Made by a program: the position numbers and the translations under genes. Under the pieces are notes generated by a model. That model did no database searches and was not told the DNA's origin. It worked only from the letters and a program-made list of their open reading frames with translations. Source: Lachnospiraceae bacterium (GTDB lineage: Bacteria; Bacillota; Clostridia; Lachnospirales; Lachnospiraceae). Taken from it: a DNA stretch of 64,000 bases. Numbering within the stretch: the stretch's first letter is position 1; the number at the start of each line of letters is the position of its first letter. The stretch covers positions 62,001 to 126,000 of the forward strand of contig JAFZVZ010000044.1 in assembly GCA_017617545.1 (NCBI GenBank), in the 5' to 3' direction. Below, one piece after another: positions 2 through 64,000 of this stretch.

Positions 2-1714
2 GCCGTGGAGCTGACGATCGCGCTGCATCGGTTCCTCACATTTCCCGAGGACAAGCTGATCTGGGACGTGGGACACCAGTGCTACACGCATAAGATCCTG
101 ACGGGTCGGAGGGAAGCATTTTCCACACTCCGGCGCGAAGGCGGGCTAAGCGGTTTCCCGAAGCGGGAGGAGAGTGAGTGCGACGCGTTTGACACGGGGC
201 ACAGTTCCACCTCGCTCTCGGTGGCAGCCGGCATGGCAATGGCGCGCGACCTGAAGGGCCAGAAGAACCGCGTTGTCGCGGTCATCGGCGACGGATCGCT
301 CTCGGGCGGCATGGCGTACGAGGCGCTCAACAACATCGGGCGGTTCGGCACGAACGTGATCGTCGTCCTCAACGACAATGAGATGTCGATCTCGAAAAAT
401 GTGGGAGGCATCGCGAACTATCTCGGCCATCTGCGCATGTCGCAGGGCTACCTGAACCTGAAAAACAGCGTGGAGCGCAAGCTGAACCGCACCAACATCG
501 GAGGCGCGCTTGCGAAGGGAATAAAGAAGACCAAGGATTCCATCCGGCAGATCGTGATCCCCGGCGATTTCTTCGAGGAGATGGGGCTCACGTATTTCGG
601 ACCGGTGGACGGACATAATGTTGCGGAGATCACAATGGCGCTGCAGGCGGCTGCCAAGGTGCGCGGCGGTGTGCTGATCCACGTGATCACCAAGAAGGGC
701 AAGGGCTACTCCTTCGCCGAGGCGGAACCGTGCAGGTTCCACGGGATCGAGCCGTTCCGGCTTGCGACCGGCAAGGTGCGCGAGGTACCGGAGGCGCCGT
801 CCTACACATCGGTCTTCGGACGCGAGATCTCCCGCCTGGCGATGAAGCGCCCGGATATCGTGTGCATCACGGCTGCGATGGCGAGCGGAACGGGACTGTC
901 CGAGTTTGCGTCGGATAATCCGGGACGATGCTTCGACGTGGGGATCGCGGAGGAGCACGCGGTGACATTTGCCGCGGGAATGGCCGCGAGCGGGCTAAGG
1001 CCCGTCGTGTGTATCTACTCCACGTTTCTGCAGAGAGCCTATGATCAGATCCTGCACGACGTGTGTCTGCCGAAGCTTCCGGTCATCTTCGCGGTTGACC
1101 GGGCGGGCATCGTGCCGCACGACGGCGAGACGCACCAGGGTTTGTTTGATATCAGTTTTCTCACCTCAATCCCCGGCATGACGGTGCTTGCGCCGTCCAA
1201 CGCGTCGGAGCTTCGGAAAATGCTCTGCTACGCGCTGACGATCGACGGTCCGGTGGCGATCCGGTATCCGAAGGGATCGCAGGACAGTGACCTCGAGCCG
1301 TATGACGAGGCGCCGGAGACCGGACATTGTCATGAGATCGTGCGCGGGAAGGATGTTGCCGTAAGCTTTGTCGGACCGATGCGGTCGACCGTCGACGTGG
1401 CAGCGGAGCTGCTCGCGAAGGATGACATTCACCCGACGATCGCGGACGCGAGATTCGTCGCGCCGTTTGACAAAGAGTGGATACGCGGTCTGGCAGGGAC
1501 GCATAAAGTGCTTGTGACCGTGGAGGAAGGTGTGGCCGCGGGAGGCTACGGAACGGCGGTTGCCGCCTGGGTAGAGGAACAGGGACTTCCTCTCCGGGTT
1601 TCGGTGATCTCGGCGCCGGACGGTTTTCTCGCACACGGCTCCCGCGAGGAATTGATCCGCAGATGCGGACTTGACGCGGAGACGATCGCGGACAGGATAC
1701 GGGGGCTTTTGTGA
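2..1714 (+). CDS. dxs: 1-deoxy-D-xylulose-5-phosphate synthase (5' truncated by window edge)
   Basis: Cytosolic thiamine-diphosphate enzyme that condenses pyruvate and glyceraldehyde 3-phosphate in the first step of the MEP isoprenoid pathway. The visible part has DVGHQ near its start, the ThDP motif GDGSLSGG about 95 residues in, and the transketolase core with GIAEEHAV and RYPKG. About 570 residues are visible and full-length enzymes have about 620-630, so roughly 50 N-terminal residues lie upstream; the frame is open to base 2 with no initiation site. The stop overlaps the GTG start of tlyA by four bases. IspH near 52968 catalyses the last step of the same pathway. Identification is secure. 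Confidence 0.97.
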   Translation, partial: AVELTIALHRFLTFPEDKLIWDVGHQCYTHKILTGRREAFSTLRREGGLSGFPKREESECDAFDTGHSSTSLSVAAGMAMARDLKGQKNRVVAVIGDGSLSGGMAYEALNNIGRFGTNVIVVLNDNEMSISKNVGGIANYLGHLRMSQGYLNLKNSVERKLNRTNIGGALAKGIKKTKDSIRQIVIPGDFFEEMGLTYFGPVDGHNVAEITMALQAAAKVRGGVLIHVITKKGKGYSFAEAEPCRFHGIEPFRLATGKVREVPEAPSYTSVFGREISRLAMKRPDIVCITAAMASGTGLSEFASDNPGRCFDVGIAEEHAVTFAAGMAASGLRPVVCIYSTFLQRAYDQILHDVCLPKLPVIFAVDRAGIVPHDGETHQGLFDISFLTSIPGMTVLAPSNASELRKMLCYALTIDGPVAIRYPKGSQDSDLEPYDEAPETGHCHEIVRGKDVAVSFVGPMRSTVDVAAELLAKDDIHPTIADARFVAPFDKEWIRGLAGTHKVLVTVEEGVAAGGYGTAVAAWVEEQGLPLRVSVISAPDGFLAHGSREELIRRCGLDAETIADRIRGLL

Positions 1715-3485: not shown

Positions 3486-3980
3486 ATGAAATCCAATCGT
3501 CAGGACAAGATTTTGGAGCTGGTTGCCACGCACGACATCGAGACGCAGGAGGAGCTGGCAACGCTTCTGAAGGAGAACGGAGTTAAGGTTACACAGGCAA
3601 CAATTTCCCGTGATATCCGTGAGCTGAATCTCACCAAGATCACGGCGGAGAACGGACGGCAGAAGTACATCGTGCTCGGAAGAGGCGATTCGGAGGGCGG
3701 CAGAACGCAGCGCTACGCGCGCATGCTCAAGGAGGCCGTGATCACTGCCGATACCGCGAAAAATCTTCTGGTGATCCGCACGAATCCCGGTATGGCTTCG
3801 GTTGTCGGAGCAGCGATCGACGCGCTCGGACTGGTGGCGCTTGTCGGCTGCCTCGCCGGTGACGACACGGTGTTCTGCGCGTTCAAGGAAGAGGAGGACG
3901 CGACCTTCGCGCTCGAGGAGCTGCAGGAAAAGATGAACTCCGCGGCGGAGGAGAAATCCACGCGCAAGAGCCGCAGATAA
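3486..3980 (+). CDS. argR: Arginine repressor ArgR/AhrC
   Basis: Arginine-responsive hexameric transcription factor. The N-terminal winged helix-turn-helix includes TQATISRDIREL at residues 37-48, where the SR pair contacts ARG-box DNA. The C-terminal domain has the GDD segment (LAGDDTVF) that binds arginine. At 164 residues it is slightly longer than the usual 150, with a basic Lys/Arg-rich tail. It follows nadK by 79 bases and precedes yebC and recN. No arginine genes are in the window, so its targets lie elsewhere. Confidence 0.96.
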   Translation: MKSNRQDKILELVATHDIETQEELATLLKENGVKVTQATISRDIRELNLTKITAENGRQKYIVLGRGDSEGGRTQRYARMLKEAVITADTAKNLLVIRTNPGMASVVGAAIDALGLVALVGCLAGDDTVFCAFKEEEDATFALEELQEKMNSAAEEKSTRKSRR

Positions 3981-4035
3981 GTTAACCATGTGAAATACGG
4001 CGGAGGGAAGTGGCATTCATTTTCCGAAGCCGTTA

Positions 4036-4081: not shown

Positions 4082-4813
4082 ATGTCAGGACATTCCAAAT
4101 TTGCCAACATCAAGCACAAGAAAGAGAAAAACGATGCCGCGAAGGGCAAGATCTTCACGCGCCTCGGCCGTGAGATCGCGGTCGCAGTCAAGGAAGGCGG
4201 CCCGGATGTGAACAACAACTCGAAGCTCAAGGATATCGTTGCGAAGGCGAAGGCCAACAACATGCCCAACGATACGATCGAGCGAAGCATCAAGAAGGCT
4301 GCGGGCGACGCGAACGCCGTAAACTACGAGTTCGTTTCGTACGAGGGTTACGGCCCGAAGGGAACGGCGATCATCGTCGATGCCCTCACGGACAACAAGA
4401 ACCGTACGGCAGCCAACGTGCGCGCGGCATTCACAAAGGGACAGGGCAGCGTCGGTCCGATGGGCTGCGTGTCGTACATGTTCGATGAGAAGGGTCAGAT
4501 CATCATCGACAAGGAAGATTTTGACATGGATCCGGACGAGCTGATGATGCTCGCGCTCGACGCGGGTGCGGAGGATTTTTCGGACGAGGAGGACTCGTAC
4601 GAGGTCATCACCGCTCCGGAGGATTTCTCGGCGGTTCGCGAAGCGCTTGAGGCGGCAGGCGTGCCGATGCTTGAGGCGGAGGTTACGAAGATCCCTCAGA
4701 CGTATGTCGACCTTACGGATGAGACCGATATCAAGCTGATCACGCGTATCATCGACCTTCTCGAGGAGGACGATGACGTGCAGGAAGTATATACCAACTG
4801 GTCTGATCAATAG
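4082..4813 (+). CDS. yebC: YebC/PmpR family protein
   Basis: Member of the YebC/TACO1 family. These were long annotated as transcriptional regulators and are now linked to translation of polyproline or otherwise stalled messages. The family start [15 protein letters not shown] is followed by the [19 protein letters not shown] region and the YEGYGPKG motif. Its 243 residues match the family length. It sits between argR and recN, which are usually adjacent. AGGAG lies at suitable spacing upstream of the ATG. The stop codon falls within the left arm of a 15-bp hairpin. The family is certain; the molecular role comes from literature on homologues. Confidence 0.94.
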
Positions 4814-8261: not shown

Positions 8262-9737
8262 ATGGGCATGACGAAAAATCTGAGGGATCTCCTTGCGGAT
8301 ATTCCGCACACGATCCTGCAGGGAAGTGATGATATCGCGGTGAGCGGAGTCGCGTTTGACACGCGGAAAATAACCGGCGGCGAGGTGTTTGTGTGCATCG
8401 CGGGCACCAAGGTCGACGGACACACGTTCATCCCTCAGGCGGCTGAGAAAGGCGCGGCCGCGGTGTTGGTGACGCGCGAAGCGAGCGCACCGGAGGGCGT
8501 TACCGTCGTTAAGGTGGAGGACGACCGCAAGGCGCTGGCGCTGCTCGGAGCGGCGTGGTACGGACATCCGTCGAAGGCGCTCACGACCATCGGCATCACC
8601 GGGACCAAGGGCAAGACAACAACGTCATACATGATCCACAGCATGCTCAACGACGCGGGCATTCCGTGCGGTCTGATCGGTACGGTCGAGATCCTCACGG
8701 GCAAGGAACGGATCTCCGCGACCCACTCGACACCCGAGTCGCTTCTGATCCAGAAATACATGGCGGACATGGTCGAGGCGGGGATGAAGGCGGTTGTGAT
8801 GGAGGTGTCCTCACAGGGCCTCAAGATGGACCGTGTCTACGGCATCGACTATGATTTCGGTCTGTTCACGAACCTCGAGCCGGATCATATCGGAGGCGAT
8901 GAGCATCCGACGTTCGAGGATTACCGCGACTGCAAGAAGAAGTTATTTTCCATGTGCAAGAAGGGCATCTTCAACGCGGACGATCAGCATTTTCCGGAGA
9001 TGAAGGACGGATGCACCTGCGAGGTTGTGACGTTCGGCGCGTCGGATGGGTGTGATTACCGCATGGCGGACACGCGCCTTCTGAACGAGCCCGGCCGCAA
9101 GGGTGTTGCGTACCGCGTGGAGGGACGCGCGGAGCTTGCGGTGGAGACGGAGATCCCGGGGCGGTTTACGATGTTCAACTCGCTGGCGGCGATCGCGCTC
9201 GGCTGCGAGATGAAACTGCCTGTAGAAGCAATGCTGAAGGCGCTCAAGGAGGTCCGCGTTCGCGGGCGCGTGGAGAGCGTACCGGTGTCGGATAAGTTTA
9301 TCGTGCTTTTGGATTACGCGCACAACGGCATGTCCCTTCGCAGCCTTCTCACAACGCTTCGCGAGTATCAGCCGAAGCGGCTTGTGTGCATGTTCGGCTG
9401 CGGCGGAAACCGCGCGAAGGACCGCCGTTACGATATGGGTGAGTGGTCGTCGAGGCTTGCGGATCTCACGATCGTGACCTCGGACAACCCGAGATTTGAG
9501 GAGCCGGGGGACATCATCGCGGATATCCTTGTCGGTGTGAAGAAGGCCGACGGCGCCTATGTCACGGTGCCCGACCGCCGCGAGGCGATCTCGTACGCGC
9601 TCGCGCATGCCGAGGAGGGCGACTGCATCGTCATCGCCGGCAAGGGGCATGAGGATTACCAGGAGATCCGCGGCGTCAAATACCCGATGGACGACCGGCA
9701 GATGATCCTTGAGGAAGCGGCGAAACTCGGGCTTTGA
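8262..9737 (+). CDS. murE: UDP-MurNAc-L-Ala-D-Glu: meso-DAP ligase
   Basis: Cytoplasmic ATP-dependent ligase adding the third residue of the peptidoglycan stem peptide. The ATP-binding motif GTKGKTTT is at residues 114-121, with the STPESL and FTNLEPDH Mur-ligase blocks following. The specificity motif DNPR near residue 408 is characteristic of enzymes that add meso-diaminopimelate (lysine enzymes have other residues), so the wall is predicted to be DAP type. Length 491. The ATG at 8262 has GGAGG nine bases upstream; a second ATG two codons later is also possible. murF follows after 92 bases. Confidence 0.95.
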   Translation: MGMTKNLRDLLADIPHTILQGSDDIAVSGVAFDTRKITGGEVFVCIAGTKVDGHTFIPQAAEKGAAAVLVTREASAPEGVTVVKVEDDRKALALLGAAWYGHPSKALTTIGITGTKGKTTTSYMIHSMLNDAGIPCGLIGTVEILTGKERISATHSTPESLLIQKYMADMVEAGMKAVVMEVSSQGLKMDRVYGIDYDFGLFTNLEPDHIGGDEHPTFEDYRDCKKKLFSMCKKGIFNADDQHFPEMKDGCTCEVVTFGASDGCDYRMADTRLLNEPGRKGVAYRVEGRAELAVETEIPGRFTMFNSLAAIALGCEMKLPVEAMLKALKEVRVRGRVESVPVSDKFIVLLDYAHNGMSLRSLLTTLREYQPKRLVCMFGCGGNRAKDRRYDMGEWSSRLADLTIVTSDNPRFEEPGDIIADILVGVKKADGAYVTVPDRREAISYALAHAEEGDCIVIAGKGHEDYQEIRGVKYPMDDRQMILEEAAKLGL

Positions 9738-9829
9738 GAGCGCGGCGGACTGCAGGGTTCAACGGAAAATGAGTTCCGCAGACCCGCGAAACGCAAATTA
9801 TGAAGTAACAGCGAAGGACGGCATTTCGG

Positions 9830-11281
9830 ATGACATACACGGTGAGTGAAATTGCAAAGGGCATGGGCGCGACGATCCTGTGCGGAGACCCGGATCGCGC
9901 GGTGAGCGCGTGGTCATTTTCCTCGAGGGAGGGAGATGCGGACACGATGTTTGTTCCGATGAAGGGAGAGCGCGTGGACGCGCACGACTTTATCGCGGAC
10001 GCGTACGCGCACGGTATGAGAGTGACGACGACGGAGCGCGGCGAGATCGTTCCGGGAACGGACGGTATGACGTACCTGGCGGTCAGCGATGCGAGAGAGG
10101 CATGGCAGCGGCTCGGCGCGTACTGGCGCGCAAAGCACGCCTCGGTGCCGATGATCGCCGTGACCGGAAGCGTCGGAAAGACGACGACCAAGGAGCTGAC
10201 GGCGCTTGCCCTTTCGCCGCTCGGAACGGTGCTTCGGACGAGCGGTAACCGCAACGGTCAGCTCGGAGTTCCGCAGATGATGGCGGAGCTTTCGGATGAC
10301 ACGGATTGCGCGGTCATCGAGATGGGCATGAGCCTGCCCGGAGAGATGGGACGAATCGCCGCTGTAGCGATGCCGGATCACGCGGCGATCACGAACATCG
10401 GTCTGTCGCACATCGGAAACCTCGGCTCGCAGGAGGGGATCCGCAGGGAGAAGCTCGCGATCGTCAACCGCCTCGCGGAGGGCGGCATGCTGTTCGTCAA
10501 CGGAGACGATCCGTTGCTGAGGGTACTCTGCCCGGATTGCCCGGAGTACGCGGGGACGGACGGGATATTGATGTACCCGGAGACGAGAGAGAGGTTCCGT
10601 ACACTCACGGTTGTCGCGTACGGCGCGGAGAATTGGTGCCGCTACCGCTATATGGATGAGGTCCTGACGGAGCAGACGGCGTCCTTCGTCTACGAGAGCG
10701 CGAACGGGACGATCCCGGTCACGCTGCCGGCGCCCGGACACCACAACGTGTCCAACGCGACGCTCGCGATCGCGGTCGCGGAGACGTTCGGCGTCAGTGC
10801 CGCGGAAGCCGCGGAGGCGCTTGCCGCGTACAAGCCGATGTCGATGCGCGGCGGACGGGAACAGCTCGACGGAGGCATCGTACTCATCGATGATACGTAC
10901 AATGCCAGCCCGGATTCGATGCGCAGCGGCTTAGATGTACTGTGCTCCGTGAGCGCGAAGCGCCACATCGCGATGCTGGCGGACATGTTTGAACTGGGGG
11001 AGCACGCGGAGGCAGGACACCGCAGGGTCGGAAGAGACGTTGCGGAGCGGCCGGTGGACGTGCTGATCACGGTCGGAGAGCTCTCGGAAGCGCTTGCCGA
11101 CGAGGCTTTGAAGAGGGCGGAGGAGATCGGACGGAAAATGGACATTTTCCGCGTAAAGACCCGCGAGGAGGGACGCGATCTGCTGCTCCCGATGCTGCGG
11201 GAGGGCGACGCCGTGCTTCTCAAGGGATCCCGCGGGATGAAACTCGACGAGGTCGCGGAGGCGCTCCGAAAGAAAAGGTAG
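9830..11281 (+). CDS. murF: UDP-MurNAc-tripeptide: D-Ala-D-Ala ligase
   Basis: Adds D-alanyl-D-alanine to complete the cytoplasmic peptidoglycan precursor. It carries the Mur-ligase ATP motif GSVGKTTTKE around residues 112-121, EMGMSLPGEMG, NIGLSHIGNLGS, and the substrate segment DDTYNASPDSM. Length 483, ending in the family-typical KGSRGMKLDEV. It lies downstream of murE and six bases upstream of priA. The reading frame contains an inverted pair of the 9-mer CGGAAAATG at 11132-11151, encoded with the uncommon codons AAA and ATT. Confidence 0.96.
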   Translation: MTYTVSEIAKGMGATILCGDPDRAVSAWSFSSREGDADTMFVPMKGERVDAHDFIADAYAHGMRVTTTERGEIVPGTDGMTYLAVSDAREAWQRLGAYWRAKHASVPMIAVTGSVGKTTTKELTALALSPLGTVLRTSGNRNGQLGVPQMMAELSDDTDCAVIEMGMSLPGEMGRIAAVAMPDHAAITNIGLSHIGNLGSQEGIRREKLAIVNRLAEGGMLFVNGDDPLLRVLCPDCPEYAGTDGILMYPETRERFRTLTVVAYGAENWCRYRYMDEVLTEQTASFVYESANGTIPVTLPAPGHHNVSNATLAIAVAETFGVSAAEAAEALAAYKPMSMRGGREQLDGGIVLIDDTYNASPDSMRSGLDVLCSVSAKRHIAMLADMFELGEHAEAGHRRVGRDVAERPVDVLITVGELSEALADEALKRAEEIGRKMDIFRVKTREEGRDLLLPMLREGDAVLLKGSRGMKLDEVAEALRKKR

Positions 11282-14122: not shown

Positions 14123-15052
14123 ATGAGAATTGTTTACATGGGCACGCCGGAGATCGCGGCGACCATTCTGGAGAGGCTTTTGGAGGAACCGTACGAGGTC
14201 GTCCTCGTCGTGACGCAGCCGGACCGTCCGAAGGGACGCGGCAACACGCTCACCTGCTCACCGGTCAAGGAGCTTGCCGTGCGCCGCGGTATCCCGGTGT
14301 TTACGCCGGAGAAGCTTCGCCTTCCGGAAAATGTGGAGGTCGTACGGGAGGCAAACCCCGATATGATCGTTGTCGCGGCGTTCGGGCAGATCCTTCCGAA
14401 GAGCGTGCTGGACATTCCCCGCTACGGCTGCATCAATGTGCACGCATCGCTCCTGCCGAAGTACCGCGGGGCGGCGCCGATCCAGTGGAGCATCCTCGAC
14501 GGGGAGAGCGAGACCGGCGTCACGATCATGTACATGAACGAGGGCCTCGACACGGGCGATATCATCACGCAGACCGTCGTTCCGATCGACGCGGATGAGA
14601 CCGGCGGGTCCCTCCATGACAAGCTCGCGGCAGCAGGCGCGGAGGCGCTTGTCGCGGCAATCCCCGGCATCATCGACGGGACGCTTGTCCCGGTCCCGCA
14701 GGGAGAGATGACGACGCCGTACGCGAAGCAGCTGACCAAGGAGATGGGCAGGATCGATTTTTCGTGGGACGCGGCGAAGATCGCGCGCTATGTTCGCGGC
14801 TTGAACCCCTGGCCCGGAACATACACGTTCCGCGACGGGCAGATGCTCAAGATCTGGAGCGCCGAGGCGTGTGACGGATGTTACGAGGCAGAGCCGGGAA
14901 CCGTTGTCGCGGTGGAGAAGGAAAACTTCCTGGTACAGACGGGCGACGGTGCCCTCCGGGTGACGGAGATCCAGCCGCAGGGCAAGCGCCGCATGAGCGC
15001 GGAGGAGTATCTCCGCGGATACCGCCTTGCCGAGGGCACGGTTTTGGAGTGA
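14123..15052 (+). CDS. fmt: Methionyl-tRNA formyltransferase
   Basis: Formylates initiator Met-tRNA using 10-formyl-THF. The product begins MRIVYMGTPEIAA; the frame is open upstream, but the ATG at 14123 with GGAGGG just before it matches the family start and gives 309 residues. SLLPKYRGAAPI, the active-site region GLDTGDI and the C-terminal tRNA-binding domain are visible. It lies between def and rsmB, with four bases between its stop and the rsmB start. Confidence 0.96.
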   Translation: MRIVYMGTPEIAATILERLLEEPYEVVLVVTQPDRPKGRGNTLTCSPVKELAVRRGIPVFTPEKLRLPENVEVVREANPDMIVVAAFGQILPKSVLDIPRYGCINVHASLLPKYRGAAPIQWSILDGESETGVTIMYMNEGLDTGDIITQTVVPIDADETGGSLHDKLAAAGAEALVAAIPGIIDGTLVPVPQGEMTTPYAKQLTKEMGRIDFSWDAAKIARYVRGLNPWPGTYTFRDGQMLKIWSAEACDGCYEAEPGTVVAVEKENFLVQTGDGALRVTEIQPQGKRRMSAEEYLRGYRLAEGTVLE

Positions 15053-15056: not shown

Positions 15057-16466
15057 ATGAATGCACGGGAATTGGTTTGGGATATGCTCACCGAGGTCAA
15101 CGAGCGAGGCGCTCTGAGCCATGAGGCTTTCGCCGAGGCGATGGCAAAGCACAGGCCGGAGGGAGCCGAGCGGGCGCTTGCCGCGCAACTGTTCAACGGC
15201 ACGCTGGAGCGCCAGCTGACGATCGACACGGTGCTTGAGCGGCAGACCGGACGGAGGATTACCGCGATCAAACCGAAGATCCGGAACCTCCTGCGCATGT
15301 CCGTCTACCAGATGCTGTTTTTGCAGCGCGTGCCTGCTGCGGTCGCGTGCAACGAGGCCGTGACGCTTGCGAAGAAGCGCGGACTTGCGGGGCTTTCGGG
15401 GTTCGTGAACGGCACGCTGCGAGGCCTGGACCGCGCGATCACCGCTGAGGGCGGGCAGCAGGAGTTCCTGCGCGCGGTAGCGGGAACGATGAAAGAGAAT
15501 GAGCGGACCGGCTTTCTGTACTCCGTGCCGGGGTGGATCACGGAGCTGTGGAGGAAGGATTTTCCGAAGGCCGATATCGAGGCGATACTTGAGGCAACCC
15601 TTACGGAAAATGCGGTCAACATTCGCCTGAACAAAAGCCGCGGTTCGATGGAGGAGCTTGTCGCGTCGCTTGAGAAGGACGGTGCGCAGCCGGAGCAGGG
15701 CGTTCTTGAAAACTGCCTGAGTCTACGGGGCGTCGGCAACCCTGCGGCGCTTGCCGCGTACCGGGACGGGCGGTTCAGCATACAGGATACAAGCGCGGTT
15801 TTAGCAGGCAATCTGCTTCCGCTGGCACCCGGCATGAAGGTGCTCGATCTGTGCGCCGCGCCGGGAGGAAAGACCGTACATGCCGCGGATGAGCTTGCGG
15901 CGCTCGCGGCAACGGAAGCCACGGGAGCGGAGTATGAGGTTATATCGCGCGACGTGAGCGAGGGAAAGCTTCACCTGATCCGCGAGCAGGTTTCTCGAGT
16001 AAACCTCTCGGGAGTGCAATGTGCGGCGGCGGACGCTTCCGTGTATGATCCCGCGCTGGAGGCGTGGGCGGATGTCGTGATCGCCGATGTGCCGTGCAGC
16101 GGCCTTGGCGTGATCGGTCGAAAGCCGGACATTAAGTATAAGACGAAGCCGGAGGACATCGCCGCGCTTTCGAAGATCCAGCGGAGCATCGTGGAGCAGG
16201 CCGTGCGGTACGTAAAGCCCGGCGGCTACCTTTCGTATTCCACATGCACGGTCGCACACGCGGAAAATGAGGACCTCGCCGCGTACATCGCGAGCCTCGG
16301 GTTGACGCCGGTGAACCTCGCGGAGCATTTGCCGAAGAGCATGCGGGAAGCGTGCGAGCGGCAGGGCGGCATCGGGGAGTGCGGTGTGCAGATATTTCCC
16401 GAGCAGGGCAAATGGGACGGATTTTACATCGCGGGTTTCCGCAAGGCGGAGAACCCGGAAGGATAG
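15057..16466 (+). CDS. rsmB: 16S rRNA (cytosine(967)-C5)-methyltransferase RsmB
   Basis: SAM-dependent m5C methyltransferase. An N-terminal NusB-like RNA-binding domain (about residues 1-140) precedes the Rossmann domain with LDLCAAPGGKT near residue 263. The DVPCSGLGVIGRKPD motif (PC pair) and YSTCTV carry the two cysteines used in m5C chemistry. The ATG at 15057, four bases after the fmt stop, fits the family; a longer upstream frame is spurious. 469 residues. Confidence 0.95.
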   Translation: MNARELVWDMLTEVNERGALSHEAFAEAMAKHRPEGAERALAAQLFNGTLERQLTIDTVLERQTGRRITAIKPKIRNLLRMSVYQMLFLQRVPAAVACNEAVTLAKKRGLAGLSGFVNGTLRGLDRAITAEGGQQEFLRAVAGTMKENERTGFLYSVPGWITELWRKDFPKADIEAILEATLTENAVNIRLNKSRGSMEELVASLEKDGAQPEQGVLENCLSLRGVGNPAALAAYRDGRFSIQDTSAVLAGNLLPLAPGMKVLDLCAAPGGKTVHAADELAALAATEATGAEYEVISRDVSEGKLHLIREQVSRVNLSGVQCAAADASVYDPALEAWADVVIADVPCSGLGVIGRKPDIKYKTKPEDIAALSKIQRSIVEQAVRYVKPGGYLSYSTCTVAHAENEDLAAYIASLGLTPVNLAEHLPKSMREACERQGGIGECGVQIFPEQGKWDGFYIAGFRKAENPEG

Positions 16467-24086: not shown

Positions 24087-24108
24087 CGGAAAATGGACTC
24101 ATTTTCCG
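24087..24108. repeat. Inverted pair of the 9-mer CGGAAAATG
   Basis: CGGAAAATG (24087-24095), four bases GACT, then CATTTTCCG (24100-24108). It is a perfect 9-bp hairpin 26 bases after the lipoprotein stop and 27 bases before ychF. No T-tract follows. It is one of two inverted pairs of the dispersed 9-mer in the window. Confidence 0.7.
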
Positions 24109-34684: not shown

Positions 34685-35512
34685 ATGGCGATAATCCACA
34701 TTGAAAAACGAAGCGCCCGGTTTCTGCGGCGCATGACCATCCTGTTCCTTATCGTTTCATTTTTCGTGATCGCCGCGTTTCAGCTGCACACGAAGTACCT
34801 GATCGACCCGGAGCAGGACGTCAGCGTGACGATCGTCGGATTTGGCGAGAGATACACTCCGCAGGAAATCCGCGACCATGTGATCCGCGACCGGTTCCGC
34901 GACCGGTACTCGCTGCTGATCAAGTGGTATTACAAGTACTACGAGGCGGAGACGCTGCCGTTCATTGAGAAGATCACCGTCGAGGTTGGTGACGACAACA
35001 AGATCCATATCACGGCGTACGAGAAACCGCCGATCGCGTGCATTTACGACACGGGATTTTACCTGTACTTCAACCGCGACGGCGAGATCATTTCCTCGAG
35101 GACCTCGAACACGGAAAACCTTCCCGTGGTCACCGGTCTGAAGTACAACAACCTTGCGATGTACCAGGTGTTTGAGACGCAGGACAACGGTCTGTTCCAG
35201 GTGATCCTGAGCATCGTGTTTCAGATGCAGGACAAGGAGTTCCACATCGACGAGATCGCGTTCGACAACAACAAGGCGGTGACGATCTCCGTAGGGGAGA
35301 ACCGGTATTTCCTGGGCGCCCGGAAGGTATATGACGTGCAGGTCGCGATGATCCCGGAGGTCGAGAGAAAGCTTGCGGAACGCAACGCCGAGAAGTCAAA
35401 AACATGCGCCTACGACATCAACATGGAGGGCGTATTCCGCAGTGACGATGACTTCTACGCGAGGGAGCGGGAGACGAATACGGAACCGGAAAATGAACCG
35501 GATGACGAGTAG
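34685..35512 (+). CDS. divIB: Cell division protein DivIB/FtsQ
   Basis: Bitopic divisome protein that bridges FtsL and the septal synthase. A short basic N-terminus, one TM helix (about 17-36), and a POTRA-like domain starting near VTIVGFGERYTPQEI are visible. The beta domain follows, then a charged C-terminal tail of about 40 residues rich in Glu and Asp. 275 residues. It lies between ftsW and ftsZ, in keeping with the dcw order. Confidence 0.88.
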   Translation: MAIIHIEKRSARFLRRMTILFLIVSFFVIAAFQLHTKYLIDPEQDVSVTIVGFGERYTPQEIRDHVIRDRFRDRYSLLIKWYYKYYEAETLPFIEKITVEVGDDNKIHITAYEKPPIACIYDTGFYLYFNRDGEIISSRTSNTENLPVVTGLKYNNLAMYQVFETQDNGLFQVILSIVFQMQDKEFHIDEIAFDNNKAVTISVGENRYFLGARKVYDVQVAMIPEVERKLAERNAEKSKTCAYDINMEGVFRSDDDFYARERETNTEPENEPDDE

Positions 35513-35611
35513 GAATCCGGACAGGAAAACGGGAATGACGCCGACTGAGAAAAAGGCGGCGGAAAATGCATAAAAAACGGCCTTGTTTTCCGCTGAAAAA
35601 GGAAAAAATGC

Positions 35612-35640: not shown

Positions 35641-35684
35641 AGAGAATGGCTAATAGGAATATTATGCAAAAGGAGGACACAACG

Positions 35685-36953
35685 TTGGTTGAAATCAAGG
35701 GAGAAGAGAACGAAGCTGCTGCAAAGATACTGGTTATCGGTGTCGGCGGCGCCGGCAACAACGCGGTAAATCGCATGATCGAAGAGGGCATTGTGGGTGT
35801 CGAGTTTATCTGTGTCAACACCGACAAGCAGCACCTCAAGAATTGCAGGGCTCCTCAGTGCATTCAGATAGGTGAGAAATTGACGAAAGGCCTCGGCGCA
35901 GGTTCCCAGCCGGATGTCGGCGAGAAGGCTGCGGAGGAGAGCAAGGAAGAACTGACCCAGATCATCAAGGGCGCGGACATGGTCTTCGTAACCTGCGGTA
36001 TGGGCGGCGGTACCGGTACCGGTGCGGCTCCCGTGGTAGCGCAGATCGCGAAGGAGATGGGCGTGCTGACGGTCGGTATCGTTACCAAGCCGTTCCGTTT
36101 CGAGGCGAAGCAGCGCATGGCGAACGCTCTCTCCGGTATTGAGCGTCTTCGTCAGTCCGTTGATACATTGATCGTTATTCCGAACGACAGACTCCTGGAG
36201 ATCGTTGACCGTCGTACGACGATGCCGGAAGCACTCCGCAAGGCAGACGAGGTTCTGCAGCAGGGTGTTCAGGGTATCACCGACCTCATCAACGCTCCGG
36301 CTTTGATCAACCTTGACTTTGCCGATGTCGAGACCGTTATGAAGGATAAGGGCGTTGCCCATATCGGTATCGGTTACGGCTCCGGCGATGACAAGTGCAT
36401 GGAGGCCGTTAAGCAGGCGACGACATCCCCGCTTCTCGAGACGAACATCGAGGGCGCAAGCCATGTCATCCTTCACATCGCAGGTGCGGTCAGCCTCATC
36501 GAGGTGAACGAGGCAGCTACCTACGTGCAGGAGCTTGCGGGAGAGGAAGCAAACATCATCTTCGGTGCGATCTACGACGAGTCCTCGCCGGATCAGTGCC
36601 GCATCACGGTTATCGCAACGGGTCTCGAGGAGCATCCGAGCTCGATGTCGCAGAGCTCCGCGAACCGTCAGAATTATGCTCCGAAGAAGCCGTCCCAGTC
36701 CGGTGTTTACACCGGCCTCGGCTACACGAACCGCAGCACCACGGCAGCTCCTACGGCAGCTCCGGTTTCCCAGGCAGCGCCCGCTGTACAGCCCGCTACG
36801 CAGGTGAGACCGAACTACACGGCTCCGGCACCGGCACCGGTGGTTACCGAGCAGCCGACGTACGCCGCACCGACCTACAACAAGCCCGCTTCGTCGGAAA
36901 ATGCCGCAGGCGGCATCAAGATCCCGGATTTCCTGCAGAAGAACCGCAAGTGA
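35685..36953 (+). CDS. ftsZ: Cell division GTPase FtsZ (TTG start)
   Basis: Tubulin homologue forming the Z ring. The G-box [10 protein letters not shown], the N-terminal [14 protein letters not shown] and the T7 loop region NLDFADV are present. A variable Ala/Pro/Thr-rich linker is followed by the C-terminal interaction peptide [11 protein letters not shown]. The strong SD AAAGGAGG (35669-35676) points to the TTG at 35685, giving [14 protein letters not shown] and 422 residues; the ATG at 35646 has no SD. Codons are shifted toward GTT, CGT and GCT compared with neighbours, as expected for an abundant protein. No ftsA is present upstream. Confidence 0.95.
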
Positions 36954-39381: not shown

Positions 39382-40444
39382 GAACTCGTTCGCGCACCGG
39401 TTTCTCGTCTTTGTCAAGGGTGACAAGCCGCTTCCCGAGGAGGACCACGTAGAAGAGTGGCGGCACCGGGTGGCGGAGGTCAAGGAGACCGAGCGCGCGG
39501 AAAATGCAAGCTACATCGAGCTTGCGGAGACCGACCCGTATGAGGACGCAAAGCGTTATGCGCGGATGTCCGATATGCGGGTGCTGCGCAGAATTTACTA
39601 TGTTCTCGCGATGCTGATGTGCCTGATGATCATCGGCATGCTGATCATGAATGTCGCGTATATGCCGATCTTCGGCAGTGAGGATACCCCGACGAACAAC
39701 GAGGTTGCGGAGAGGTATCTCGAGAAAGGAAGCGAGGAGACCGGCGTTGTCAACACGGTCACGGGAATGATCCTGCAGTACCGCGCGTTTGATACGTTCG
39801 GTGAGACCAACGTGCTGTTCGTAGCTGCCTGTTCGGTCATGATCCTTTTGTTCTACAAGACGGAGCCGGAGGGCGACAGGGCAGGGAAGCGCAAGAAGAA
39901 AGCGGCTTCGCGGCGTCGAAAGGAAGCTGCCGTGGCAGTCGAGGAAGTTTCGGAGACGCCGGATGGCGGAACTGAGGCTCCGTCCTGCGTCTGGCCGCAG
40001 GCGATGCAGGAGAAGGAGACGGAACCGGAGCCGGATGTCATACTGCAAAACGTTGCCCGTGTTGTCGTTCCGATGATCTTTCTCTTCGGACTGTACATCC
40101 TTCTGAACGGACATCTTTCCCCGGGAGGCGGGTTCTCCGGAGGAGCCGTCATCGGAGCGGGACTGATCCTGTACAATGCGGCGTTTGGGTTCCGCGCGAC
40201 AAGACGGTTCTTCGATGAGAAGGTGTACGATATCATCAAGGTCGGGTCGCTGTGCCTGTACGCGATGATCATCGCGTATTACCTCTTTACGGGCGCGAAC
40301 GGCATCGCATCGATCGTGCCGCTCGGCAAGCTCGGCAACATCATCAGCTCCGGCCTGATCCTGCCGATCAACCTGCTGGTAGGACTTGAGGTCGCGTGCA
40401 CGATGTACGCATTTTACGCATTGTTCCGAAGAGGAACGTTTTAG
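39356..40444 (+). CDS. MbhE-MrpB fusion antiporter subunit
   Basis: 362 residues in two parts. The first has a soluble charged N-terminus of about 70 residues, a TM helix, and the MbhE/MrpA-C-terminal motif VTGMILQYRAFDTFGE with a second helix. A 70-residue Lys/Arg then Glu-rich linker follows. The second part is an MrpB domain with the glycine-rich LNGHLSPGGGFSGGAVIGAG and four helices. In Mbh complexes these are two separate proteins (MbhE, MbhF). The ATG at 39356 lies behind GAGGAGG and within the end of the previous gene. Confidence 0.82.
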   Translation: MSRIRKNYENSFAHRFLVFVKGDKPLPEEDHVEEWRHRVAEVKETERAENASYIELAETDPYEDAKRYARMSDMRVLRRIYYVLAMLMCLMIIGMLIMNVAYMPIFGSEDTPTNNEVAERYLEKGSEETGVVNTVTGMILQYRAFDTFGETNVLFVAACSVMILLFYKTEPEGDRAGKRKKKAASRRRKEAAVAVEEVSETPDGGTEAPSCVWPQAMQEKETEPEPDVILQNVARVVVPMIFLFGLYILLNGHLSPGGGFSGGAVIGAGLILYNAAFGFRATRRFFDEKVYDIIKVGSLCLYAMIIAYYLFTGANGIASIVPLGKLGNIISSGLILPINLLVGLEVACTMYAFYALFRRGTF

Positions 40445-42485: not shown

Positions 42486-44132
42486 ATGATTGGAGCATGG
42501 TTGATACCGGTAACTGTTTTGGTGCCGCTGCTGGGAGCGATCCTTTTGATGACTCCCTTGTACCGCAAGAGTACTCTCTCCGTGAGGGTCGTAACCGGGG
42601 CGTTCGTGACGGCGACCTGTCTTCTGGTCGTTGCGGTCGCGATGCTCGGCGAGAAGGAAATCGAGCTCTTTGAACTGCTTCCGGACATCCCCGTGTTCTT
42701 CCGGTCGGACAAGACGGCGGTCTGGTTCGCCGTGCTTACGGTCGCAATGTGGATGACGTCCACGTTATTTTCCTTCGAGTATATGAACCATGAGAGGCGG
42801 GAGACGAGATACTGCGTCTTCTCCCTGCTCGCGCTTGCGGCGTTGATGGGCGTGTGCTTTTCCGGAAACCTTGTCACGACCTACCTGTTCTATGAGATGA
42901 TGACACTCGCGACGTTCCCGCTCGTCATGCATGAGCAGACGAAGGAATCGATCTCCGCGGGCATCACATACCTGTATTACTCGCTCGCGGGAGCATTCCT
43001 CGGTCTGATCGGCGTGTTCTTCCTCTACAGCTTCGCGGAGGAGCGCTCGGTTGCCGGCGGCGTGATCTCGTACGCGGCAGGCGGCTTTATCCGCGGTGAT
43101 CTGAGCAACAACGAGCGCACGGCGCTCACGATCGCGGTGTTCTTCATGCTGATCGGTCTCGGCTCGAAGGTCGGTATGTACCCGCTCCACGGATGGCTTC
43201 CGAAGGCGCATCCGGTTGCCCCCGCGCCCGCCTCGGCGCTTCTGTCGGGCAACATCACGAAAATGGGTATCCTCTTCGTGATCCGCGTTGTGTTCTTCTC
43301 TGTGGGACCGGAGTTTTTGCAGGGGACATGGGCACAGTACGCGCTGCTCGGATTGGCGCTGCTGACGGTATTCCTCGGTTCGATGCTTGCCTTCCGAGAG
43401 AAGGTTTTCAAGAAGAGACTCGCATATTCGACGGTCAGTCAGACATCGTATGTTCTGGTTGGACTGTACCTCCTGGCGCCGGTGGCGGCGATGGGAGCGT
43501 TCCTTCATATCATTTTCCACTCGATCACCAAGAACCTGCTGTTCCTCGTAGCCGGCGCGATCATCTACAAGACCGGCCGCACGAAGGTTGCGCAGATGAA
43601 GGGCATCGGTCTGATCATGCCGGTAACGATGATCTGCTTCACGCTCGGCGGCCTTGCCCTTGTCGGTATCCCTCCGTTCTCGGGCTTCGTCAGCAAATGG
43701 TACCTCGCAGCGGGTGCACTCAAGACGGAGACCGGTCCGATGCGGTTCCTTGTTCCGGTGATCCTGATCATCAGCGCGCTGCTCACGGCAGGCTATCTGA
43801 TCACGATGGCCTCGGACGCGTTCTTCGTTGTGGAGGAGCATGAGGGACACGGCGCTCACGGCGGTGCGAAGAAGGAAGAGACCGCCTCGGAGAAGCCCGC
43901 GGATGCTGACGCCGAAGCTGTTTTTTCGGAAAATGCAGCGGCTTCCCCGGCAGAGAACGACGAGGAAGATGAGTTTGACGTGATCACGGCGGACAGCGCG
44001 CAGAAGGGCAGGGAAGCAAGCCCGTTCATGCTGATCCCGCTTGTGGTGCTTGCCGCGGGAACGCTGTTCTTCGGATTGTTCCCGAGCCTTCTTACGGACT
44101 GGGTTGCACAGATCCTGAATTCCGTATTTTAG
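42486..44132 (+). CDS. Mrp D-type proton-conducting membrane subunit, copy 2
   Basis: 548-residue antiporter-type subunit. The key polar residues are in place: FYEMMTL (helix-5 Glu), GSKVGMYPLHGWLPKAHP (helix-7 Lys), HIIFHSITKNLLF and KKRLAYSTVSQTSY. A soluble, Glu/Ala-rich loop of about 75 residues (after VVEEHEGHGAHGG) is inserted before the last TM helix and is absent in ordinary MrpD/NuoM. Follows copy 1 by 12 bases with GGAGGAGG. Confidence 0.92.
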   Translation: MIGAWLIPVTVLVPLLGAILLMTPLYRKSTLSVRVVTGAFVTATCLLVVAVAMLGEKEIELFELLPDIPVFFRSDKTAVWFAVLTVAMWMTSTLFSFEYMNHERRETRYCVFSLLALAALMGVCFSGNLVTTYLFYEMMTLATFPLVMHEQTKESISAGITYLYYSLAGAFLGLIGVFFLYSFAEERSVAGGVISYAAGGFIRGDLSNNERTALTIAVFFMLIGLGSKVGMYPLHGWLPKAHPVAPAPASALLSGNITKMGILFVIRVVFFSVGPEFLQGTWAQYALLGLALLTVFLGSMLAFREKVFKKRLAYSTVSQTSYVLVGLYLLAPVAAMGAFLHIIFHSITKNLLFLVAGAIIYKTGRTKVAQMKGIGLIMPVTMICFTLGGLALVGIPPFSGFVSKWYLAAGALKTETGPMRFLVPVILIISALLTAGYLITMASDAFFVVEEHEGHGAHGGAKKEETASEKPADADAEAVFSENAAASPAENDEEDEFDVITADSAQKGREASPFMLIPLVVLAAGTLFFGLFPSLLTDWVAQILNSVF

Positions 44133-50216: not shown

Positions 50217-50806
50217 TTAAGATGAATCTTCCGAACAGGATCACGCTGGTCCGGGTCTTCATGATCCCGGTTTTCGTCGTGCTCCTGATGCTGAAGGATA
50301 TCCTTCCGTACTACAATTTCATTGCCCTCGCGGTGTTCGCGACGGCAAGCTTTACGGATTTTCTGGACGGCCACATTGCGCGCAAGTACAACCTTGTGAC
50401 GACGTTCGGCAAATTCATGGATCCCCTCGCGGACAAGATCCTCGTCAGCACGGCGCTGATCCTGCTGATCGAGTTTGATAAGATTCCCGCTGTTGTCGTC
50501 GCCGTCATCCTGGCGCGCGAGTTCATCATCAGCGGCTTCCGTCTGATCGCCTGCGACAAGGGCGTGGTGCTGGCGGCCGGGTATCTCGGAAAGATCAAGA
50601 CATTTTCCCAGATGCTCATGTGCTGCTTCATGCTCTTCACGGCGGATCCGGCGTACAACAAGTATCTGTTCTTCCGCATCGTGGACGTTCTCGGCTTCGT
50701 GTTCATGGTGTTCGCCCTGATCATGACTGTGGTGTCCCTGGTGGATTACCTTTGGAAGAACATCGATGTCCTCAAGGACGATAAGGAGAAAAAGAGCGAG
50801 CAATGA
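50213..50806 (+). CDS. pgsA: CDP-diacylglycerol-glycerol-3-phosphate 3-phosphatidyltransferase
   Basis: Membrane enzyme committing CDP-diacylglycerol to phosphatidylglycerol. The CDP-alcohol phosphotransferase motif is complete: DFLDGHIARKYNLVTTFGKF followed by MDPLADK. About five TM helices, 197 residues. It overlaps rimO and the downstream flavoprotein gene by four bases on each side. Phosphatidylglycerol is also the donor used by Lgt (25256). Confidence 0.95.
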   Translation: MIKMNLPNRITLVRVFMIPVFVVLLMLKDILPYYNFIALAVFATASFTDFLDGHIARKYNLVTTFGKFMDPLADKILVSTALILLIEFDKIPAVVVAVILAREFIISGFRLIACDKGVVLAAGYLGKIKTFSQMLMCCFMLFTADPAYNKYLFFRIVDVLGFVFMVFALIMTVVSLVDYLWKNIDVLKDDKEKKSEQ

Positions 50807-52164: not shown

Positions 52165-52263
52165 GGCATTTTCCGAATACTGAGAAACGGATGCCGCGGG
52201 AGAGATCAACTTCGGCGGATATACACAAAATCATAGAAACTGACGGGAAAGAGAGAGACAACC

Positions 52264-55121: not shown

Positions 55122-55193
55122 CACTTGAGGGGGGCGGCTTCATTTTCCGACGAATGCCGCATAAAAACGAAACTGCCGCAAGGAGGAACAGAT

Positions 55194-56207: not shown

Positions 56208-56233
56208 CCTTGTAAAGATACGGGAGATGGCTT

Positions 56234-62051: not shown

Positions 62052-62092
62052 GTGTGAGGTGCGGAAACGATTTTCCGCAGAGGGGGGAAACA

Positions 62093-64000
62093 ATGAAAAA
62101 AGTCTTTTTGCTGCTTGTGGCAGTATGTCTTGTGCTACTGCCGGTCGGTTGCTCGAAAAAGCCTGACAATTCCGGGGACAACAAGACGGAGGACGTGACC
62201 GTGACACCCACGGAGGCTCCTACGAACGTGCCGGAGAAAACGCCGACTCCGACGGAGACGGGACCGGACAACCGGATCACGTTGACGCTGTCTCAGATTC
62301 TCGACAAGAGCAACGGCGGGAATGTGATCATGTATGTGCTGGAAGGAACGCCGGAGGAGACGACGCAGGTAGCTTCCGTTCTCGCGTTTAAGGACGGCAA
62401 GGTCACCGTGTACAACAGCGATACGGTGACGGAGGCACTCCCTGCGAATCTGCTTGCGGGCGCGGAGACATTTTCCGATGAGGAGCTTTTGAGCCGGCTG
62501 GACGAGGCATACCAAAAGCGTGTGAGTTTTGCGATCGGGGAGATCGTAAAGAAGAACGAGGAAGCGGCGGCACTGTACGCCCTGTCGCTGACCGGAAGCG
62601 AAGCGGGTGAGTGGACAGGACGCGATTATTTTTCGACATGTAAGGACTGGTATGTATGCGTGGACGCGCCGGCCGCGTACGAATATTACACGTTTGTGTA
62701 CACGGATGCGTCGGGCAAGAATCTTCTCCAGGAGAAGCTGATCGTGCCTCAGGTCTGGGGGACGGACGAGCTGATCACGAGAAACGGGGAGATCATGGCA
62801 GGGCAGTCGATCGTGTTTGACTACAAAAAGGCAGAGGCGCCCGCGATCCCCGGATATGATTCCGATACATTGGCGGCGGCTGACGCCGAGATGTGGCTCA
62901 ACGAGTATAAAAATGTGATCGTCAGCATCCGCGAGGACGAAAGCGCTTCGGCGCAGGGCAACGTGCAGGTTGCTCTCAGGGATGCCCTGACGATCGACGC
63001 GAAAAAGCCTCTGTACGGAAAGATCGCCAACCGGGATTACATCGGGTATGCGACGGAGAACGGCGGTTCGGTGATCCTTCTTTGCGAGCCGGACACGGCT
63101 TCCGCAGCAGACACCGCGGAGACGATACAGGGGAAGGCTTCCTATATTGTGAACCCGGATTACACGAAGGAGGCGCAGCTCCGCTATGACATCAACCGGA
63201 GCCTTCTTTCTTCCGCGGAGCCGTTCTGGGAGAAGGAGAGCGTCAAGACGTATCTGAAGGATTATGTCACCAAGGAGCTGGCATATCGGTTTATTGAGAA
63301 CAAGCGCACGGATCTCGGATGCTATGTGCTTGAGTGCCTCGGCTTTGCCGATGAGGCGGAGCAGGTACGCGCAGAGAAGGACAACGAGCCGGAGGAGAGA
63401 GATCTGGGCGGTATGACGCTTGTCCTCGGCAACTGGTGGGATGACGGATCCATCGAGCCGTTCTCGGAATCGGACAAGATCATATACGACTATCAGCAAG
63501 AGGTAATGAGGAAGAATAACTTCTCCGTCGTCAAGAAATGCGACTACACCTGGGGTGACCAGGCGGAATCCTGTATTCTGTCCATTGTCTCGGACGAGCC
63601 GCTGGCCGATATCCTGATGTTCGACTACCGGTTCATTGGATCGTTCATGAATGCCGAAAAACCGATGTTTGCCGACCTCTCAAAACTCACGGAGTTTGAT
63701 TTTTCGGACGAAAAATGGAACAAGCAGGTCACGGAGTGCATGACGATCGGCAACAGCATCTACGGTTTTTCCCTTACGAAGGATCCGACGACGGGCGTGT
63801 ACTGGAACAAGGATCTTGTGGAGATGCTGCTCGGACCCGGCAAGGGAGATTGTCTGTACGACTGGCAGGCGAGCGGAGAATGGACGTGGGATAAGTTCAA
63901 GGAGTTCGCAAAGGAGTGTACGGTTGACCGGGACTTCGACGGTATGACGGATATCTACGGACTTACCGCATTTCAGGCGTACTTCTTTGAGATGGCGATC
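62093..64000 (+). CDS. Solute-binding-like lipoprotein (3' truncated by window edge)
   Basis: The frame is open from the ATG at 62093 (behind GGGGGGAAAC) to the window end, 636 codons so far. A signal peptide ends in the lipobox PVGC with Cys20, followed by a Thr/Pro linker (TPTEAPTNVPEKTPTPTE). About 400 residues of unrecognised N-terminal domain come next. From about residue 440 (LGNWWDDGS, then YDYQQEVMRKNNFSV) the sequence resembles the first lobe of family 1 extracellular solute-binding proteins of ABC transporters, with DILMFDYRFIG and GFSLTKDP. The transporter genes would lie beyond the window. Substrate unknown. Confidence 0.75.
   Translation, partial: MKKVFLLLVAVCLVLLPVGCSKKPDNSGDNKTEDVTVTPTEAPTNVPEKTPTPTETGPDNRITLTLSQILDKSNGGNVIMYVLEGTPEETTQVASVLAFKDGKVTVYNSDTVTEALPANLLAGAETFSDEELLSRLDEAYQKRVSFAIGEIVKKNEEAAALYALSLTGSEAGEWTGRDYFSTCKDWYVCVDAPAAYEYYTFVYTDASGKNLLQEKLIVPQVWGTDELITRNGEIMAGQSIVFDYKKAEAPAIPGYDSDTLAAADAEMWLNEYKNVIVSIREDESASAQGNVQVALRDALTIDAKKPLYGKIANRDYIGYATENGGSVILLCEPDTASAADTAETIQGKASYIVNPDYTKEAQLRYDINRSLLSSAEPFWEKESVKTYLKDYVTKELAYRFIENKRTDLGCYVLECLGFADEAEQVRAEKDNEPEERDLGGMTLVLGNWWDDGSIEPFSESDKIIYDYQQEVMRKNNFSVVKKCDYTWGDQAESCILSIVSDEPLADILMFDYRFIGSFMNAEKPMFADLSKLTEFDFSDEKWNKQVTECMTIGNSIYGFSLTKDPTTGVYWNKDLVEMLLGPGKGDCLYDWQASGEWTWDKFKEFAKECTVDRDFDGMTDIYGLTAFQAYFFEMAI

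What the first reader, a model, noticed from the sequence alone, without database searches (positions are those of the whole stretch)
1214..62477. Dispersed over-represented 9-mer CGGAAAATG/CATTTTCCG
Reading both strands, I find 19 exact copies, starting at 1214, 4018, 8988, 9763, 11132, 11143, 14325, 15604, 16261, 24087, 24100, 35487, 35560, 36895, 39498, 43927, 52167, 55141 and 62469. At high-50s percent GC, base composition predicts fewer than one copy in 64 kb. The 7-mer core GGAAAAT/ATTTTCC appears about 55 times against roughly 4-5 expected. Seven of the 19 lie between genes, although spacers are only a few percent of the window. Within genes they fall in different reading frames and use codons otherwise avoided here (AAA, AAT, TTT, ATT), so a favoured amino-acid pair does not explain them. 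This resembles the behaviour of DNA uptake sequences, Chi-like sites or other genome-wide signal words; I know of none with this sequence in clostridia.
Basis: partly seen in the sequence, partly recalled or inferred. Interest (0 to 1): 0.78.

Follow-up and report, generated by a model that had tools for sequence, protein, structure and literature searches.

The report
Genome-wide uptake-signal-like DNA word
A nine-letter DNA word is repeated about a thousand times across the genome of a bacterium of the Lachnospiraceae and behaves like the 'uptake signal' words that two other bacterial families use to recognise and import DNA of their own kind.

Summary
All 19 copies are where stated. The own genome holds 1005 copies against 7 of the reversed control. 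In an 840-kb sample (31%) genes hold 168 copies against 13 after synonymous-codon shuffling, spacers 108 against 4. The word is a genus trait: 22 genomes hold 63-1060 copies, with variants by clade. Outside the genus the highest counts seen are 401 and 337.

It has most of the published profile of DNA uptake sequences (DUS, USS): five times denser between genes, no leading-strand bias (141 of 280), 11% in close inverted pairs, relaxed outer positions, sites in poorly conserved stretches yet kept 2.5 times more often than matched words, few in low-GC genes. E. coli Chi, run through the same scripts, looks different. The genome encodes a retractable type IV pilus, ComEA, ComEC and DprA, but so do word-poor relatives, so machinery does not prove the function.

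Best reading: a third, independently evolved uptake-signal system, outside the two families known to have one. Uptake itself and the receptor are not shown.

The parts
1214..1222 (+). word copy, inside DXP synthase gene 5-1714
   Evidence: exact match; gene; Pfam
4018..4026 (-). word copy, intergenic (between 3486-3980 and 4082-4813)
8988..8996 (-). word copy, inside Mur ligase gene 8262-9737
9763..9771 (+). word copy, intergenic
11132..11140 (+). word copy, left arm of an inverted pair inside Mur ligase-like gene 9830-11281
11143..11151 (-). word copy, right arm of the same inverted pair
14325..14333 (+). word copy, inside formyltransferase gene 14123-15052
15604..15612 (+). word copy, inside RsmB-type 16S rRNA methyltransferase gene 15057-16466
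16261..16269 (+). word copy, second one in the same gene
24087..24095 (+). word copy, left arm of an intergenic inverted pair upstream of a YchF-type GTPase gene (24135-25232); no T-run follows directly
24100..24108 (-). word copy, right arm of the intergenic inverted pair
35487..35495 (+). word copy, near the 3' end of gene 34733-35512 (no Pfam match)
35560..35568 (+). word copy, intergenic, upstream of ftsZ
36895..36903 (+). word copy, near the C-terminal end of ftsZ (35664-36953), beyond the FtsZ_C domain
39498..39506 (+). word copy, inside MnhB-domain gene 39356-40444
43927..43935 (+). word copy, inside gene 42549-44132 (not annotated here)
52167..52175 (-). word copy, intergenic, just after gene 50803-52164
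55141..55149 (-). word copy, intergenic
62469..62477 (-). word copy, inside gene 62093-64000 (runs off the window; not annotated here)

Best explanation
CGGAAAATG (fixed G2 and inner A-A-T, tolerated outer positions, T-rich 5' side) is a DNA uptake signal of a naturally transformable Lachnospiraceae genus. A surface DNA receptor, most likely a minor pilin of the retractable type IV pilus, binds the word in extracellular double-stranded DNA. PilT-driven retraction brings it to ComEA and ComEC, one strand enters, and DprA/RecA recombine it. Because word-bearing kin DNA is taken up preferentially, copies that arise by mutation are copied into homologous sites and pile up wherever sequence constraint is weak; when receptor specificity drifts, dialects appear, and when preference is lost the word decays. 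Shown here: the genome-wide and genus-wide excess beyond codon and composition effects, its placement, lack of leading-strand polarity, conservation, clade-wise variants, and presence of pilus, ComEA, ComEC and DprA genes. Inferred: that uptake happens, that it is word-dependent, that a pilin is the receptor (RecA was not looked for).
For: Count: 1005 copies against 7; 22 of 22 genus genomes 63-1060 copies, controls 1-34. Relaxed variants are in excess too: substitutes at positions 1, 3 and 9 have 42-94 copies each against 8-20 expected, while positions 2, 6 and 8 stay near or below expectation. Net about 2 motif sites per kb by weight matrix against simulated background. Genic 168 vs 13, spacer 108 vs 3.7; density 1.14 vs 0.23 per kb. 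Leading strand 141 of 280. Inverted pairs within 60 bp 16 vs 2.4 expected, direct 1 vs 2.5, i.e. 32 of 289 copies. Sites lie in weakly conserved stretches (flank identity 0.72 vs 0.80), yet 31 of 80 site-by-relative comparisons keep the word against 12.2 expected for flank-matched 9-mers. Lowest-GC tenth of genes: 3 copies in 69 kb against 109 in the 395 kb of the upper half. Clades carry variants (GGMAAATGCGA type in G120, G124, G126, G129, G139). Machinery of the own genome: PilB, PilT, PilC, prepilin peptidase, PilM, several pilins, ComEC, ComEA, DprA. The same distribution features are listed for uptake sequences in PMC1939737 (passages) and PMC3630211 (passages).
Against: No transformation or uptake data exist here. 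Machinery does not track the word: ComEC, ComEA, DprA and pilus ATPases are also in word-poor G132 and G138 and in wordless genera, while DprA was not found in word-rich G130 (95% complete) and ComEC not in word-rich G135 (82% complete). None of the six pilins checked in the own operon is strongly basic (best pI 7.9, net +1), unlike ComP. Inverted pairs lack the terminator T-runs seen in Neisseria and Haemophilus. There is some orientation signal: 75 of 123 on the leading strand in relatives, and in spacers between co-directional genes 54 of 83 own copies point against the genes. In genus g74 (G073) the GG.CAATG variant was found in genes only (73 genic, 0 in 9.4 kb of spacer), which a pure uptake model does not predict. 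The low-GC tenth still shows excess over codon shuffling, so it is depleted, not free of the word.
Confidence: 0.63

Rival explanations
1. Binding sites of an abundant intracellular DNA-binding protein (nucleoid-associated or chromosome-organising), which coevolves with its site.
For: Weight-matrix-like degeneracy with an AAAAT core and T-rich side, intergenic enrichment, close inverted pairs in both configurations and few direct pairs, as a dimer might prefer; a lean against gene direction in spacers (54 of 83); conservation of sites.
Against: About 6000 sites (extrapolated) at near-random spacing over genes and spacers; sites sit where neighbours are least conserved, as expected for passive accumulation; far above control in only a few of the 198 genomes of other genera in the family tested with GGNAAATG; I know of no nucleoid protein with so specific and so numerous sites (recalled).
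Confidence: 0.18
2. Chi-like site recognised by AddAB/RecBCD.
For: Short over-represented word with species variants; commoner in composition-typical genes; mild leading-strand lean in relatives (75 of 123).
Against: No leading-strand bias in the own genome (141 of 280), 118 of 289 copies intergenic; E. coli Chi in the same pipeline 31 of 45 leading, 0 of 45 intergenic. Known Chi words are G-rich (recalled).
Confidence: 0.06
3. HIP1-like word maintained with a DNA methyltransferase (self-marking).
For: A genome-wide short word; HIP1 is named as the third class beside Chi and uptake words (PMC4390886, passages).
Against: Not palindromic, tolerant at positions 1, 3 and 9, whereas methylation sites are usually exact (recalled); no methylation data and no search for methyltransferases was made.
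Confidence: 0.06
4. Codon, amino-acid or composition artefact, or a dispersed mobile repeat.
For: One codon offset is favoured in genes (107 of 168).
Against: Survives synonymous shuffling about 13-fold and is 29-fold in excess in spacers; flanks beyond about 8-10 bp show little shared sequence.
Confidence: 0.02

Closest known systems
Neisseriaceae DNA uptake sequence (DUS), receptor minor pilin ComP
   Same: 9-12 nt word in about a thousand copies or more, tolerant flanks around a fixed core, enriched between genes and in permissive coding stretches, inverted pairs, clade-wise dialects, type IV pilus plus ComEC/DprA present
   Different: Unrelated sequence; host family of another phylum (Gram-positive, recalled); inverted pairs are not terminators; no receptor or uptake shown; no strongly basic pilin among six checked in the own genome
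Pasteurellaceae uptake signal sequence (USS), predicted receptor ComN
   Same: 9-nt core with an AT-rich side, no leading-strand polarity, about 10% in inverted pairs, coding and non-coding copies
   Different: Core AAGTGCGGT versus CGGAAAATG; the T-rich side is directly 5' rather than spaced 3'; another phylum
Chi sites of RecBCD/AddAB
   Same: Short over-represented word, species-specific
   Different: Chi leans to the leading strand and is genic in the E. coli control (31 of 45; 45 of 45); this word does neither in the own genome
HIP1 (GCGATCGC) of cyanobacteria
   Same: Genome-wide short word of high density
   Different: HIP1 is a palindrome tied to orphan methyltransferases; this word is asymmetric and degenerate

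Membership tests
DNA uptake sequences (DUS/USS) | hundreds to thousands of copies of a 9-12 nt word per genome, far above expectation | tested here: met
   1005 vs 7 control; genic 168 vs 13, spacer 108 vs 3.7
DNA uptake sequences (DUS/USS) | copies in genes and, more densely, between genes | tested here: met
   168 genic, 118 intergenic, 3 at gene edges of 289; 0.23 vs 1.14 per kb
[quoted passage not shown]
   141 of 280 on the leading strand by GC skew. Less clean: relatives 75 of 123; spacers between co-directional genes 54 of 83 against gene direction
DNA uptake sequences (DUS/USS) | about 10% as close inverted pairs | tested here: met
   16 inverted pairs within 60 bp = 32 of 289 copies, 2.4 pairs expected
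DNA uptake sequences (DUS/USS) | inverted pairs double as Rho-independent terminators | tested here: not met
   0 of 7 hairpin-type pairs under 35 bp has a T-run next to it (by eye); a secondary trait of the known families, not required for uptake
DNA uptake sequences (DUS/USS) | clade-wise dialects around a shared core | tested here: met
   Motif variants by clade, variants surviving codon shuffles; eight carriers share GGAAAATG in spacers, so part of the variation in genes may be codon-driven
DNA uptake sequences (DUS/USS) | type IV pilus and DNA import genes | tested here: met
   own genome; but not specific to word carriers
DNA uptake sequences (DUS/USS) | word-dependent binding and uptake of DNA by competent cells, with a dedicated receptor | not testable with these tools
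   no experiment; receptor not identified
Chi sites | over-representation on the leading strand, mostly genic | tested here: not met
   (own genome; relatives lean mildly)
Chi sites | recognised by AddAB/RecBCD | not testable with these tools
   biochemistry needed
HIP1-type words | palindromic word | tested here: not met
   the word is asymmetric
HIP1-type words | linked to a DNA methyltransferase | not tested
   no methylation data; methyltransferases were not searched
Dispersed repeat or mobile element (REP-like) | shared sequence beyond the word, mainly extragenic | tested here: not met
   little information beyond about -8/+10; 168 of 289 copies genic

The most novel reading that the evidence does not exclude
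Sequence-selective natural transformation has evolved a third time, in Gram-positive Lachnospiraceae, mostly of the ruminant gut. It uses an unrelated word with its own dialects and presumably a pilin receptor different from ComP, and it forms DNA-exchange groups and barriers among gut commensals.
Probability: 0.6. Interest if true: 0.92.

Novelty: new variant of a known kind. Interest (0 to 1): 0.82.

Why it matters
[quoted passage not shown] A third, phylogenetically remote case would show that self-DNA recognition evolves repeatedly, give an independent test of the molecular-drive model and of whether minor pilins are always the receptors, and imply that ruminant-gut Lachnospiraceae exchange DNA by transformation within dialect groups. 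It also gives a practical hint: the word in donor DNA may help to transform such bacteria in the laboratory.

Tried and rejected
Dialect for G131: of the copies of GTGGTACTA behind its top score, most form a 53-bp tandem repeat at one place; dropped. G099's TGGNCCNTG was not followed up; I take it for a local repeat (inference). Poly-A words in G120, G122 and G123 were ignored as low complexity.

Receptor hunt: pilin content and charge do not separate word-rich from word-poor genomes (charge looked at in 5 genomes). The minor pilin at L141:15911-16420, which by eye resembles GspH/FimT (recalled), matches only the pilin N-terminus in Pfam and, weakly, other pilins plus two unrelated proteins in PDB sequences (10 hits with E up to 1). 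ComEC (28 of 30 genomes), ComEA (30 of 30, 29 over the cut-off), DprA (28 of 30, 27 over the cut-off) and T2SSE ATPases (30 of 30) do not separate them either. Full-length PilB-type matches were not listed for G120, G128, G135 and G136 (drafts 79-86% complete) nor for G114 and G023 of other genera.

An apparent clash between the ychF and PilB trees over G126 looked like a link of dialect to pilus genes; 33 of 35 G126 comparisons put it with the PilB clade and both exceptions are ychF itself, counted twice, so no such link is claimed.

Terminator role for inverted pairs: rejected, no adjacent T-runs. Even spacing: rejected, 149 gaps fit an exponential (KS p 0.38).

Structure prediction was not used: without a receptor candidate it would not discriminate. 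Pfam scans covered 10 window genes and 10 pilus genes; the rest of the window was not annotated. Gene calls are from a simple ORF caller of mine, not a trained gene finder; in a few loci it called antisense frames (e.g. G132, G137).

Literature: 10 of 10 searches used. Judged by titles and abstract starts, no listed paper describes this word or an uptake sequence in Lachnospiraceae or Clostridia; only openly licensed PMC papers are held. Of PMC12616744 I read the introduction and passages; of PMC3630211, PMC1939737, PMC5397411, PMC1852404, PMC3694846, PMC8897410, PMC4390886 and PMC5031613 passages only.

Full report
OBSERVATION. The 19 copies are exact and at the stated places. The window is part of contig C20 of a 2.73-Mb draft genome (97.6% complete), which has 1005 copies, 492 and 513 by strand, against 7 of the same letters read backwards. 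In a 450-kb sample an order-3 Markov model expects 12 where 162 are seen. The stronger control is coding-aware: in 840 kb (the window plus 40 fetched stretches) the 708 called genes hold 168 copies while 30 synonymous-codon shuffles give 13.3 on average and 23 at most; spacers between called genes hold 108 against 3.7 from an order-2 model.

ANATOMY. Substitution counts show positions 2, 6 and 8 near or below expectation when changed, positions 4, 5 and 7 with weak excess of some substitutes (C and T at 4, C at 5, G at 7; 2- to 3-fold), and positions 1, 3 and 9 tolerant, each substitute 4 to 9 times over expectation. The 5' side is T-rich (T 0.46 at -1, 0.48 at -5), most clearly in spacers; beyond about -8 and +10 there is little. 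A weight matrix gives about 2.2 net sites per kb with a simulated background share of a quarter, i.e. about 6000 in the genome (extrapolated).

PLACEMENT. Density is 1.14 per kb between genes and 0.23 in genes. The word has no leading-strand preference in the own genome (141 of 280); relatives lean mildly to it (75 of 123), and in spacers between co-directional genes 54 of 83 own copies point against the genes. Spacing is random overall (149 gaps), except for an excess of inverted pairs closer than 60 bp (16, expected 2.4) without an excess of direct pairs (1, expected 2.5). The seven hairpin-type pairs under 35 bp have no adjacent T-run. As a contrast, Chi in 200 kb of E. coli K-12 run through the same scripts is on the leading strand in 31 of 45 cases and intergenic in 0 of 45.

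EVOLUTION. Own sites aligned to seven relatives (76-87% identity) lie in poorly conserved neighbourhoods (0.72 against 0.80), yet the word is kept in 31 of 80 comparisons where flank-matched control words predict 12.2 (the 80 comparisons reuse some sites). Low-GC genes, the likeliest recent arrivals, are poor in it: 3 copies in 69 kb against 109 in the 395 kb of the GC-richer half. This is what drive by biased uptake predicts, but any protein-binding site tolerated in free space could look similar.

DISTRIBUTION. Of 22 genus genomes, counts run from 63 to 1060, controls 1 to 34. Outside, one genome from each of 119 other genera of the family has 4 to 401 copies, the two highest being G073 (401) and G089 (337); a further draw of 245 others of the order has at most 184. 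With GGNAAATG, among 200 family genomes the two own-genus ones, G073 and G089 stand far out (7- to 14-fold over control), with G170, G160 and G043 next at about fourfold. Matching counts identify ten genus mates as MAG records, six of them titled from ruminant forestomachs: UBA1175 = G121, RGIG10172 = G130, RGIG8155 = G128, RGIG7903 = G127, RGIG2905 = G125, RGIG2751 = G124, RGIG8119 = G129, RUG13295 = G134, RUG14085 = G135, and a horse-faeces MAG = G131 (identity by count is an inference). Trees of YchF and PilB give a word-poor group (G123, G132, G138, near G122), a clade with the variant GG(A/C)AAATGCGA (G124, G126, G129, G139, and G120 by YchF only; G131 word-poor within it) and the word-rich clade of the own genome. 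Variant words survive codon shuffling, e.g. GG.AAAT.C in G134 63 against 10, and GG.CAATG in G073 73 against 8. In spacers GGAAAATG itself is in excess in eight carriers with at least 5 copies (G000 162 against 3.4; G089, G121, G125, G126, G127, G130, G140 with 5-12 against 0.2-0.4), but the word-poor G132 also has 5 against 0.6, and elsewhere counts are 0-4. So part of the 'dialect' signal in genes may be a shared core bending to codons. EM on word-poor genomes also returns something at 0.25-0.45 net per kb, and 0.7 in G061, so such low values should not be read as signal.

MACHINERY. The own genome has a type IV pilus operon with PilB, PilT, PilC, prepilin peptidase, PilM and several pilins, plus ComEC, ComEA and DprA. 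Of the 30 genomes examined, a T2SSE ATPase was found in 30, ComEC in 28, ComEA in 30 and DprA in 28. Word-poor G132 and G138 have all four; word-rich G130 lacks a DprA match and word-rich G135 a ComEC match, both in drafts. These genes therefore permit but do not prove the function. That the hosts are Gram-positive is recalled, not tested.

COMPARISON. Bakkali 2007 (PMC1939737, passages) lists for uptake sequences: a large share within reading frames, about 10% in inverted repeats, excess in non-coding DNA, no orientation bias, over-represented mismatched forms, and location in unconstrained coding regions. Each was tested here and met in the own genome, with the orientation leans above as the blemish. 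Frye 2013 (PMC3630211, passages) adds clade-wise dialects around a fixed core. [quoted passage not shown] A Veillonella study screened for such words without settling on one (PMC5397411, passages). My ten searches listed no report for Lachnospiraceae or Clostridia.

VERDICT. The word is a real, genus-wide genomic signal. It works, on present evidence, most like a DNA uptake sequence; formal membership needs an uptake experiment. Probability of that function about 0.63; the main rival is an intracellular DNA-binding protein.

Noticed in passing
G126 ychF (L215, L286): ychF of G126 is slightly closer to the own genome's clade (91.5% vs 89.6%), while the other 33 of 35 comparisons favour the other clade (both exceptions are ychF, counted in two overlapping loci): a possible transferred or recombined core gene.
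   Followed up: partly
L193:15-290 (G131): A 53-bp tandem repeat containing GTGGTACTAAA at a contig end; it mimicked a dialect word in the first k-mer scan.
   Followed up: yes
L323 (G122:C175): G122 has a second, divergent PilB/PilC-type locus (PilB 43% identical to the own one) besides the genus operon.
   Followed up: no
G123:C63:24535-25331 and G129:C57:53707-54488: ComEC matches are split in two in these drafts, with stops inside in G129; assembly error or decay cannot be told apart.
   Followed up: no
L197-L200 (G073): The variant GG.CAATG is found 73 times in genes and not once in 9.4 kb of spacer, unlike GGAAAATG in the same genome (16 genic, 3 in spacers). Unexplained.
   Followed up: partly
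window 1-64000: GATC-containing words (CGCGATC 81, CGTGATC 68, GACGATC 64 copies) are among the commonest 7-mers of the window; codon usage is a likely cause but was not tested.
   Followed up: no
G000:C6:9709-27805 (L137, L138): An 18-kb stretch without the word, of ordinary composition and, from the protein starts printed, no obvious mobile genes.
   Followed up: partly
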